The translations under genes were made by a program, and so were the position numbers. Shown piece by piece: positions 10,996 to 13,511 of a stretch of 64,000 nucleotides of DNA. A model generated the notes under the pieces. The model was not told where the DNA came from. It did no database searches and saw only the letters and a program-made list of their open reading frames with translations. The first letter of the stretch is position 1; the number at the start of each line of letters is the position of its first letter. The stretch comes from Stenotrophomonas maltophilia R551-3 (lineage in GTDB: Bacteria > Pseudomonadota > Gammaproteobacteria > Xanthomonadales > Xanthomonadaceae): assembly GCF_000020665.1 (NCBI RefSeq), contig NC_011071.1, positions 1,478,501-1,542,500 on the forward strand. Reading direction: 5' to 3'.

Positions 10996-11517
10996 TTACC
11001 GGACTGCTGGCCGCGCAGGCGTGGCCGAGGGAGACCACCGCGCCAACCATGCATCCACGCTCAGCCTGCCGGCACCGGTGAAGATCAGCGGCAGCAGCAT
11101 GGCCATGAACAGCACCGGCAGCTTGAAGTTGCCGAAGCCCTGGTCGCTGATCGCATAGCCCATGGCGAGGTCGGCCAGCGAGTTCCATTCCATTGGCCAG
11201 TGCACCGCATAGGTGGCCACCACGGTCAGTACCAGCAGGCTGGCGGCAGCAAATCGGGTACCGAACCCGAACAGCAGGCAGGCGGCGCCGATCAGCTCGA
11301 ACCAGGTCGCAAGCTGCCAGTTCAGCGCGGCCGGCAGCTGGTCGAACGGGAACGGGAAAGCGTCCTGCAGGTCGGCGAACCAGTTCTGGCCGCGCAGTTT
11401 CTCGCGGCCGGATTCGAAGTATTCCCAGGCCAGCAGCAGGCGCAGGCCGAGCGGGGCCAACCAGGGGGCGAGACGGTCCAGCTGGCCACGCGTGGCGGCC
11501 AGGGTCGGAAGGTTCAT
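10996..11517 (-). CDS. DoxX-family inner-membrane protein, last gene of the hvf operon
   Basis: A 173-residue membrane protein with about four helices ([71 protein letters not shown]). The first helix with its [11 protein letters not shown] turn is typical of DoxX proteins. It starts 27 bases after hvfC and closes the operon. DoxX proteins are the usual fourth member of DUF692/DUF2063 clusters (called BufD in bufferin work), and a role in the membrane redox or export side of the system is inferred from that association. No enzymatic residue can be named. Confidence 0.87.
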
Positions 11518-11544
11518 CGGTGGTTCTCCGTGGGGGAAGGGGCG

Positions 11545-12300
11545 TCAGCCAGGGACTGTGAGCGGGCCGATCACGCCGGCCTGCAGGAACTGCTGCAGCA
11601 GCACGGCACCGGGCCCGGCCAGCGCCTCCTCAGCCAGGCCGTTCGCAGCGGCCAATTGCCGCAGATAGGCATGTCCATCGAGGCCGGGTTGTTCGCCGAT
11701 GCTGGACAGCAGGTACACCGCCAACGGGCTGAGTGCGGCGAAGCGCACTTCGCCATCGGCCTCACGGCGCACCAGCAGGCCGGTCGGTTCGGCCGGCGGC
11801 TGCATTGGCGCATCCTCGGCACCGAGTCGATGCACCGGCCACTGGTACAGCAGCGGCCAGGCCAGTGGTGAGCGCTGCAGCGGTACCTGCAGCGGATCGA
11901 TGTTGCCGGGTGCCGGCAGCGGCTCGGCCTGCAACTGGTACAGCGCGGTCTCCACCCACTCGTAATGAGCGAGTTCGGCCAGCGCCGGGTGCGGCAGCTG
12001 CAGCTGTGCCTGCAGCCATTGCACGAATTCGGCGGCCAGCTCGGTGAACAGCGGTGCCTGGCAGCGATGGGTCGCGAAGTACTGGCGGACCAGCGCGCTC
12101 CAGGCCGGTTCGCCGAGCAGGCGCACGCAGACCGGGAAGCCGTTGCTCAACAGGCCCAGCAGATTGTTGAACAGCAGCCGTTGGTACACCGCGACCCGGC
12201 GTGGCTCCAGCCCGACTGGCGGTGGCACACCCTGCGGATCGCGCAGGTGTGCGGTGAACGCATGCTGCTGTGCGCGCAGCCTGTCGGGAGCATCAGCCAT
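11545..12300 (-). CDS. hvfC: HvfC-type DUF2063 protein, partner of the RiPP maturase
   Basis: A 251-residue DUF2063 protein (putative DNA-binding domain in older annotation). In metallophore clusters this family binds the DUF692 enzyme and presents the leader of the precursor peptide. Seen here: the N-terminal helical domain with [16 protein letters not shown] and [20 protein letters not shown], then [21 protein letters not shown], all typical of the family, and a C-terminal mixed domain. ATG was chosen at 12300 because it overlaps the maturase stop by 8 bases; the reading frame stays open further upstream but that sequence belongs to the maturase gene. Confidence 0.9.
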
Positions 12301-13168
12301 GTGCGCTCCCGGCGTGCGTGGCCTGCAGGCGGCGGATGGTCTGCAGTTCGCCCTGCAGCTCGGCGTACGGGGGGAAGTTGAAATCGCGTTCGAGCAGGGT
12401 CGGACGCGCGCCGATGCGTGCATAGGTACGCGCCAGCAGTTCCCAGACCGGGTCGATCACAGCACTGCCATGGGTATCGATCTTCAGGTCCGGTGCCTCA
12501 TCCAGGTGCCCGGCCACGTGCAGGCAGACGATGCGCTCTGCGGGCAGCCCGGCAATGAAGGTGTCGGCGTCGTAGCCATGGTTGCAGGCATTGACGTAGA
12601 CGTTGTTGACGTCCAGCAGCAGGTCGCAGTCGGCCTCGGCGAGCACGGCATTGGTGAAGGCCAGTTCGTCCATCGCCGGTTCCGGTGCCAGGTAGTAGGA
12701 GACGTTCTCCACCGCGATGCGGCGGCCGAGAATGTCCTGCACGCGCGCGATGCGTGCCGCGGTATGGCGCACGGCTTCGTCGGTGAATGGAATCGGCAAC
12801 AGGTCGTAGAGGTGGCCATCGTCGCTGCAGTAGCTCAGGTGTTCGCTGTACAGCGGCACGCGATGCGTGTCGAGGAAGTTCCCGACCTGCTCCAGCAGCT
12901 GCGTATCCAGGGGTGCACTGCCGCCCAGTGACAGCGACAGGCCATGGCAGCTCAGAGGATGGCGCTGTGCCAGTTCGGCCAATGCATCACCGGCTGGGCC
13001 GCCGACATGGATCCAGTTCTCTGGCGCGCATTCGAGGAAGTCGAAGTCACCGGCCGGCGCGTCGCGCAGATCCTGCAGCAGCGCCCGGCGCAGGCCCAAC
13101 CCGGCGGCCGCCGCACGAAGCGGCGACCGCGGGTGGACGACGGCGGCGCGGACGTCAGTGCTTGGCAC
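12293..13168 (-). CDS. hvfB: HvfB-type DUF692 multinuclear iron oxidase (MNIO), RiPP maturase
   Basis: Predicted to oxidise cysteines in the HvfA repeats. The 291 residues form a DUF692 TIM-barrel. Metal-ligand segments characteristic of the family are visible: [72 protein letters not shown] and [16 protein letters not shown]. No ATG is available near the conserved start, so GTG at 13168 (reads MPSTDVRAA) is chosen. It lies 14 bases inside hvfA, after a GAAGG-like ribosome site. The frame continues open through hvfA on this strand, but that part is a shadow. Relatives include MbnB and the bufferin maturases. Confidence 0.92.
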
Positions 13169-13511
13169 CGCACTTGCCTTCGCCGCACTTGCCTTCGGCC
13201 GACTTCTTGTCGCCGGTCTTGGCCTTGGCGCCTGCCGCAGCACCGGCGGCCTTGCCCTTGTCGGCGCCGCACTTGCCTTCAGCGCTCTTGCCGTCGGCAC
13301 CACATTTGCCTTCGGCGTGCTTGGTCGCATCAGCGGCCATCTTGGTGTCCGCTGCCTTGGCATCGGTGGTGGCCTTGGCGGCCTGGCCAGCAACCAGATA
13401 GCCCTGGGCCAGGTCACTCATGCTCAGCGCCGAAGCGCTGGCGGTCATGCCCAGGCCAGCGGCCAGGGCGGTAGCAGTCAGCAGGGACAGGGTCTTGTTG
13501 GAACTGCTCAT
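13155..13511 (-). CDS. hvfA: HvfA-type metallophore precursor with four EGKCG repeats
   Basis: A 118-residue secreted precursor peptide. It begins with a Sec-type signal ([21 protein letters not shown]), then the leader segment [16 protein letters not shown], an alanine and lysine-rich spacer, and a core with EGKCG at 67-71, 78-82, 106-110 and 111-115 (Cys70, 81, 109, 114). These are its only cysteines. The last two motifs are fused in tandem. In characterised relatives the cysteines of this motif are converted by HvfB and HvfC into copper-binding oxazolone/thioamide or thiooxazole groups. That chemistry is inferred here from the motif and neighbours. First gene of the hvfABC-doxX operon. Confidence 0.92.

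What the first reader, a model, noticed from the sequence alone, without database searches (positions are those of the whole stretch)
10996..13511. HvfABC-DoxX operon for a modified-cysteine metallophore
A secreted peptide with four EGKCG motifs (Cys70, 81, 109, 114) is followed, with overlaps, by DUF692 and DUF2063 genes and a DoxX gene. This is the full set of a RiPP metallophore of the HvfA/bufferin class. Members with this EGKCG form are little studied outside Haemophilus. The last two motifs are fused ([10 protein letters not shown]) and a 23-residue spacer splits the core into two pairs, so the metal site could differ from known ones.
Basis: partly seen in the sequence, partly recalled or inferred. 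Interest (0 to 1): 0.85.

Follow-up and report, generated by a model that had tools for sequence, protein, structure and literature searches.

The report
Copper-binding peptide operon (HvfABC-DoxX)
This is a Stenotrophomonas version of a known bacterial operon thought to make a copper-binding peptide with chemically altered cysteines; the family is known, but here two lone cysteine sites are strictly kept and the operon appears to share a control element with genes that repair oxidised envelope proteins.

Summary
In detail: four minus-strand genes, hvfA (118 aa, Cys70/81/109/114), hvfB, hvfC and a DoxX gene, form a tight operon. NCBIfam puts HvfB, HvfC and HvfX over their cut-offs and BufB, MbnB and ChrH under theirs. 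It belongs to the known oxazolin/captophorin class (5-thiooxazole cysteines).

The novelty claim is inverted. Fused [10 protein letters not shown] is the standard unit (PMC13419390); the derived part is the two SOLITARY motifs. Of 55 loci in the clade, 34 are solitary-solitary-doublet and 12 three doublets. In 40 loci the solitary motifs show 45 inferred codon changes and no amino-acid change. FonBC did not modify a one-repeat peptide (PMC12668002), so this tests that rule.

New lead: a 36-bp element 5' of hvfA, in 55 of 55 loci of the clade, has one other match in the genome, before an msrB operon beside a two-component system. A sister clade has an ECF sigma gene 5' of hvfA in 8 of 12 loci. 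This parallels Haemophilus RpoE2 control of msrAB and the hvf cluster (PMC7907618), apparently with another regulator. No expression, mass or copper data exist here.

The parts
13155..13511 (-). hvfA: secreted EGKCG precursor peptide, 118 aa
   Evidence: NF050137 32.1 bits over cut-off 19.5; NF050188 23.8 under cut-off 95
13428..13511 (-). predicted Sec signal peptide of HvfA (residues 1-28, ending ASA)
   Evidence: read from the sequence by eye; no signal-peptide program was run
13377..13427 (-). conserved leader [17 protein letters not shown], candidate recognition stretch for HvfC (inference)
   Evidence: part of a 44-codon signal/leader block with 26 amino-acid changes among 194 codon changes in 40 loci, few of them in this stretch
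13299..13313 (-). solitary EGKCG 1 (Cys70)
   Evidence: 28 codon changes, 0 amino-acid changes in 40 loci
13266..13280 (-). solitary EGKCG 2 (Cys81)
   Evidence: 17 codon changes, 0 amino-acid changes in 40 loci
13167..13196 (-). [10 protein letters not shown] doublet (Cys109, Cys114), running into the proposed hvfB start
   Evidence: 16 codon changes, 0 amino-acid changes in 40 loci
12293..13168 (-). hvfB: MNIO (DUF692) maturase, GTG start proposed
   Evidence: PF05114 336.7 bits; NF003818 HvfB 419.7/360, BufB 264.2/310, MbnB 46.6/325; PDB 3bww 1.3e-79
11545..12300 (-). hvfC: DUF2063/RRE partner protein (PME1)
   Evidence: NF050145 257.6/142; PF09836 and PF22106; PDB 3dee 3.9e-7
10996..11517 (-). 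hvfX: DoxX-family membrane protein
   Evidence: NF050144 154.5/80; PF07681
13594..13629 (-). 36-bp conserved element 5' of hvfA, shared with the msrB operon
   Evidence: 0 mismatches, 0 in 100 shuffles of the window; 0-2 mismatches in 55 of 55 clade loci and in none of 21 others scanned; 2 sites in own genome, 0 for the reversed pattern
13711..13735 (-). terminator-like hairpin between phoU and hvfA
   Evidence: 2 overlapping sites found, 1.0 expected from shuffles, so weak on its own

Best explanation
hvfABCX makes a periplasmic copper-binding peptide of the oxazolin/captophorin class. HvfC (RRE partner) presents the HvfA precursor to HvfB, a multi-iron oxidase that turns EGKCG cysteines into 5-thiooxazoles; the peptide goes out by Sec and chelates excess copper, with HvfX/DoxX as an accessory membrane protein of unknown role. 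In the S. maltophilia clade the peptide mostly has two lone EGKCG sites plus a C-terminal doublet, all kept by selection, so the lone sites are probably used too. A 36-bp element shared with an msrB - thioredoxin-domain protein - msrA operon suggests that the peptide is switched on together with periplasmic methionine-sulfoxide repair, i.e. in oxidative (hypochlorite-like) or copper envelope stress. Shown here: gene order, family membership, motif conservation, shared element. Inferred: the modification, export, copper binding, regulator and signal.
For: Family models; solved relatives 3bww and 3dee. HvfB carries an Arg-Arg pair (residues 27-28) and LERDF that correspond, by spacing, to the selectivity residues and catalytic base reported for FonB (RR in 75 of 76 rows, no match to my search string in one; LERDF in 76 of 76; PMC12668002 section 13). 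Lone motifs: 45 codon changes, 0 amino-acid changes. Element. Precedent: in H. influenzae the DoxX cluster with the COG3220 and DUF2063 genes is RpoE2-dependent and HOCl-induced, as is msrAB, and resembles the Neisseria SigE regulon (passages of PMC7907618).
Against: No mass, copper or expression data for this organism. The HvfA equivalog model is not met. FonBC did not modify a one-repeat peptide (PMC12668002 section 11), so the lone sites may stay free thiols. The 40 rows of the codon count were chosen for having the solitary-solitary-doublet layout, which favours intact motifs; loss of a whole motif could not be seen. The element could be a site for a factor unrelated to stress. No ortholog of the sister clade's ECF sigma is in this genome, and the 21 first-copy loci outside the clade lack the element at hvfA, so the link to msrB is not general even in the genus.
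Confidence: 0.85

Rival explanations
1. Only the C-terminal doublet is modified; Cys70 and Cys81 stay as thiols that bind metal or form disulfides.
For: FonBC modified a two-repeat but not a one-repeat FonA peptide (PMC12668002 section 11).
Against: The whole EGKCG motif, not just Cys, is invariant at both lone sites: 45 codon changes, 0 amino-acid changes in 40 rows. One locus (L134) has one doublet and otherwise lone motifs. The failing FonA peptide was a short minimal substrate.
Confidence: 0.3
2. The enzyme is a bufferin (BufB) or methanobactin (MbnB) maturase rather than an HvfB.
For: Homology to both is detectable.
Against: Both models score under their cut-offs (264.2/310; 46.6/325) while HvfB is over its own (419.7/360); the precursor has EGKCG repeats.
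Confidence: 0.04
3. The shared 36-bp element is an ECF-sigma promoter read by an unidentified sigma factor, not a two-component site.
For: Relatives in Haemophilus and Neisseria, and DUF2063 operons of Caulobacter, are under ECF sigmas (passages of PMC7907618 and PMC3511200); a sister clade has an ECF gene directly 5' of hvfA; no sigma-70-like promoter was found; the genome holds other ECF-like proteins (5 matches at up to 31% identity).
Against: That ECF's ortholog is absent from this genome; the msrB copy of the element lies next to a divergent response regulator in 21 of 21 msrB-type loci read; by eye it fits no ECF promoter that I could name.
Confidence: 0.4
4. The element is coincidental or an unrelated conserved DNA site.
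For: No transcription data.
Against: 0 hits for the reversed pattern in 91 genomes; 82 of 91 have the element somewhere; hvfA copies have 0-2 mismatches in 55 of 55 loci, against 5 or more on the reverse strand of the same stretches.
Confidence: 0.05

Closest known systems
Oxazolin (HvfABC-HvfX), nontypeable Haemophilus influenzae
   Same: Same four gene families, secretion signal, EGKCG repeats; co-regulation with msrAB reported there, under RpoE2 (PMC13419390 and PMC7907618, passages)
   Different: HvfA has three doublets there; here two lone motifs plus one doublet; order here is A-B-C-X, listed as X-A-B-C there; different apparent regulator
Fontiphorin and gonophorin (captophorins; FonABC, NgoABC)
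   Same: MNIO with PME1 partner and 5-thiooxazole class, EGKCG repeats (PMC12668002)
   Different: FonA has seven sites; the one-repeat rule was measured on FonBC, not on this enzyme
Bufferins (BufABCD)
   Same: DUF692, DUF2063 and DoxX genes, copper buffering
   Different: Precursor motif; BufB model under cut-off; no NrsF gene found in this genome
Methanobactin (MbnABC)
   Same: MNIO cysteine oxidation
   Different: MbnB model far under cut-off; its modification is oxazolone/thioamide

Membership tests
HvfB-type MNIO maturase | curated HvfB model over cut-off, with the BufB, MbnB, ChrH and ApyH models under theirs | tested here: met
HvfB-type MNIO maturase | conserved Arg-Arg and Asp-Phe substrate/catalytic residues of the Lys-Cys group | tested here: met
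   mapping to FonB numbering is by spacing (235 against 234); FonB itself was not aligned
HvfC/PME1 partner | DUF2063 plus NGO1945 C-terminal domain | tested here: met
HvfX | HvfX-family model over cut-off | tested here: met
HvfA precursor | EGKCG repeat domain model NF050137 | tested here: met
   32.1 over 19.5 for the whole protein, 21.7 in the genome
HvfA precursor | full-length HvfA equivalog NF050188 | tested here: not met
   23.8 against 95; so filed as HvfA family, not as the HvfA equivalog
Captophorin | 5-thiooxazole on EGKCG cysteines | not testable with these tools
   needs mass spectrometry and NMR
Captophorin | binds copper | not testable with these tools
   needs a binding assay
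RpoE2/SigE-type msr regulon | hvf cluster and msr genes under one regulator | tested here: inconclusive
   shared element but no regulator identified
Bufferin (Caulobacter type) | BufB model over cut-off and SigF/NrsF control | tested here: not met

The most novel reading that the evidence does not exclude
Metallophore output and envelope repair would thus be coupled independently of the Haemophilus/Neisseria sigma factor, which argues that the peptide's job is tied to oxidised-methionine/copper stress.
Probability: 0.35. Interest if true: 0.6.

Novelty: new member of a known kind. Interest (0 to 1): 0.4.

Why it matters
The function of EGKCG peptides and the rule for which sites are modified are open. 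Here nature supplies a large set of variants with conserved lone sites, and a two-operon element that makes a direct, cheap prediction: hvf and msr rise together. That metallophore and methionine-sulfoxide repair are linked in Haemophilus and Neisseria by a sigma factor, and in Stenotrophomonas apparently by a shared element, would suggest that the pairing itself is under selection.

Tried and rejected
Sigma-70 promoter scan over 10800-13800: 0 sites. Rfam over 10000-14600: 0 matches at gathering scores. NrsF (Caulobacter-type anti-sigma) in the genome: 0. Ortholog of the sister clade's ECF sigma in the genome: five weak matches, best E 1.1e-9, none over 31% identity, so no ortholog. The element outside the genus: 0 of 234 other genomes among 247 drawn from the family (13 were of the genus, 11 of them with a match). 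A third site in the genome with 3 mismatches to the shorter pattern was not pursued beyond an ORF list and is taken as chance. I tried to read the element as sigma-70, sigma-54 or a classic ECF -35/-10 by eye; none fitted well, so the regulator stays open. The response regulator and kinase beside msrB match no named NCBIfam system over its cut-off among the best 25 of each. Of 45 Pseudomonas HvfB-like loci, 44 show no forward-strand ORF with two or more KCG in the stretch fetched and one (L039) has a doublet; not pursued. For the second copies my search string for the Arg-Arg pair gave RR in 20 of 28 and other letters in 8, which I take as matches in a wrong frame or place and did not resolve.

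Literature on Stenotrophomonas: 'Stenotrophomonas'+'DUF692' gave one unrelated paper; 'Stenotrophomonas maltophilia'+'DoxX'+'copper' gave none; at least two of 'captophorin', 'oxazolin', 'Stenotrophomonas' gave 29 papers, none of the eight listed being about this in Stenotrophomonas (listing only); 'Stenotrophomonas maltophilia'+'methionine sulfoxide reductase'+'two-component' gave 11 papers, 10 listed, none opened. The main texts of PMC12452194, PMC12668002 and PMC13419390 do not contain the word Stenotrophomonas. No structure was predicted.

Limits of the counts. The tree is rooted at the midpoint, so I cannot say whether the ECF gene or the element at hvfA is the older state. L152 (truncated) was left out of the 76-row tree; L112 is a second copy of the own locus and was dropped; L160-L187 (26 second copies, plus the sole copies of G018 and G089) were not in the tree. 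The relaxed pattern was written after looking at these loci. In one search, L152 could not be scanned and only about 116 nt could be scanned for L145. In one search the start of L137 was picked wrongly; one search scanned it without needing the start. The start of L140 is doubtful too.

Full report
Observation. The peptide has EGKCG at residues 67-71 and 78-82 and a fused pair at 106-115; the 23-residue spacer is right. hvfA and hvfB overlap by 14 nt if hvfB starts at GTG 13168; hvfB and hvfC overlap by 8 nt; a 27-nt gap precedes hvfX. phoU lies upstream, behind a terminator-like hairpin, and RNase T follows downstream; I take neither as part of the system.

Organism. One MNIO gene, one EGKCG precursor and no NrsF were found in it.

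Family. NCBIfam places the enzyme as HvfB (419.7 bits, cut-off 360), with BufB (264.2/310), ApyH, MbnB and ChrH all under their cut-offs; HvfC and HvfX are over theirs; the peptide passes the repeat-domain model as a whole but not the full-length HvfA equivalog. Solved relatives are 3bww for the enzyme (1.3e-79) and 3dee for the partner (3.9e-7). The Arg-Arg and LERDF residues that PMC12668002 (section 13) ties to substrate choice and catalysis in FonB are found in 75 and 76 of 76 rows (mapped by spacing, not by alignment to FonB).

What is known. The papers that I read in part say: HvfA of H. influenzae carries three [11 protein letters not shown] motifs, and its modification has been reassigned to 5-thiooxazole (PMC13419390, abstract and passages); fontiphorin, oxazolin and gonophorin share this modification, evidence supports copper binding and detoxification, and the name captophorins is proposed (PMC12668002, abstract, passages and sections 11-13); about 2,000 EGKCG precursors were collected, the first type having 17-residue repeats with two motifs each (PMC12452194, abstract, passages and section 15). 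So the fused pair is ordinary.

What differs: the lone motifs. 79 of 91 genus genomes have an HvfB match, 105 matches in all; I read the stretch around each. Of the 77 first-copy loci (a phoU-like gene found beside 72 of them), 76 went into the tree: solitary-solitary-doublet 34, three doublets 23 (two of these with one altered motif, L119 and L147), solitary-solitary-doublet-doublet 6, and rarer ones. In the 55-locus clade that holds the window (support 96/93) the counts are 34, 12, 6 and three singletons; the 12-locus clade beside it has doublets only. One locus (L121) shows a single lone motif where its near relatives have a doublet, and cutting 17 residues out of the six-motif form L084 reproduces the window's core apart from spacer length, so copy number seems to change by loss of repeat units. 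On the HvfB tree the two lone motifs of 40 loci need at least 28 and 17 codon changes and no amino-acid change, while the 12 codons around them show 21 amino-acid changes in 54. These rows were chosen by layout, which favours intact motifs, and loss of a whole motif could not be seen; but in no locus of the 55 has a lone motif its Cys replaced, while one doublet (L119) has Cys to Ser. I take the lone sites as functional. Because FonBC did not modify a one-repeat peptide, either this HvfBC is more tolerant, or the longer peptide helps, or the lone cysteines work unmodified.

Control region. In an alignment of the 5' region of 55 loci, one block between phoU and the start codon stands out. The 36-bp element at 13594-13629 has 0 mismatches to the pattern and none is found in 100 shuffles of the window. 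It is present (0-2 mismatches) in 55 of 55 loci of the clade and in none of the 21 other loci scanned, whose best matches have 7 or more mismatches; the reverse strand of the same stretches gives 5 to 12. Genome-wide there are two sites in the window's genome, and 82 of 91 genus genomes have at least one, against none for the reversed pattern. The second site lies between msrB and a divergent OmpR-type response regulator with its histidine kinase; msrB is followed by a thioredoxin-domain membrane protein (its DsbD_TM match is under the cut-off) and msrA. Of 30 loci read around sites, 21 were of the msrB type, all with the response regulator; the other 9 lie just 5' of hvfB matches.

A second wiring. 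In 8 genomes, all in the 12-locus clade, an ECF sigma gene lies directly 5' of hvfA, ending 78-81 nt before the start in six of seven loci measured (26 nt in L140, whose start is doubtful). It is absent at E<=1e-25 from the other 83 genomes, the window's included. Those 8 loci lack the element 5' of hvfA and of the sigma gene while keeping it at msrB in the four that I read (L195, L196, L197, L216). Beside phoU there are thus two alternative control arrangements, and further loci with neither. In H. influenzae the hvf/DoxX cluster and msrAB both depend on the ECF sigma RpoE2 and respond to hypochlorite, and Neisseria SigE is similar (PMC7907618 passages). In Caulobacter sigma-F drives two DUF2063 operons (bufferin operons, as I recall) but no change of msrA was seen (PMC3511200 passages), which speaks against a universal pairing. 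The coupling of metallophore and methionine-sulfoxide repair therefore recurs in some lineages, with what looks like a different regulator here. That is a prediction from DNA, not a measurement.

Verdict. Two testable points are worth keeping: conserved lone EGKCG sites, and the shared hvf/msr element. I found no paper on either in Stenotrophomonas with the searches, which cover an open-access library only and, were seen as capped listings.

Noticed in passing
L160, L162-L187 (for example L177:1552-5094): 26 of 91 genus genomes have a second HvfB-like match (62-68% identity) with an EF-hand-fused EGKCG precursor and a DoxX gene before it; in L177 a membrane protein follows hvfC. G089 has only this type; the window's genome lacks it.
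   Followed up: partly
L138-L144, L148: An ECF sigma gene directly 5' of hvfA in 8 Stenotrophomonas genomes, beside phoU in 7 of the 8 stretches held.
   Followed up: partly
L029, L033, L043, L073: Lysobacter/Vulcaniibacterium-type HvfA peptides carry EF-hand-like stretches (by eye) between EGKCG blocks, not only after them.
   Followed up: no
L032, L034-L042, L045-L067, L069-L072, L074-L081: Of 45 Pseudomonas HvfB-like loci (about 70% identity) 44 show no forward-strand ORF with two or more KCG in the stretch held; L039 has one doublet. Their substrate is unclear.
   Followed up: no
L024; P0002, P0009: Records titled Bacillus subtilis and Rhizopus arrhizus hold what looks like Stenotrophomonas hvf sequence, so probably mislabelled or contaminated.
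   Followed up: no
window 10880-10985: Inverted-repeat sequence with GTCGAC and TTGGTTGGCAC blocks between hvfX and the RNase T gene, REP-like by eye.
   Followed up: no
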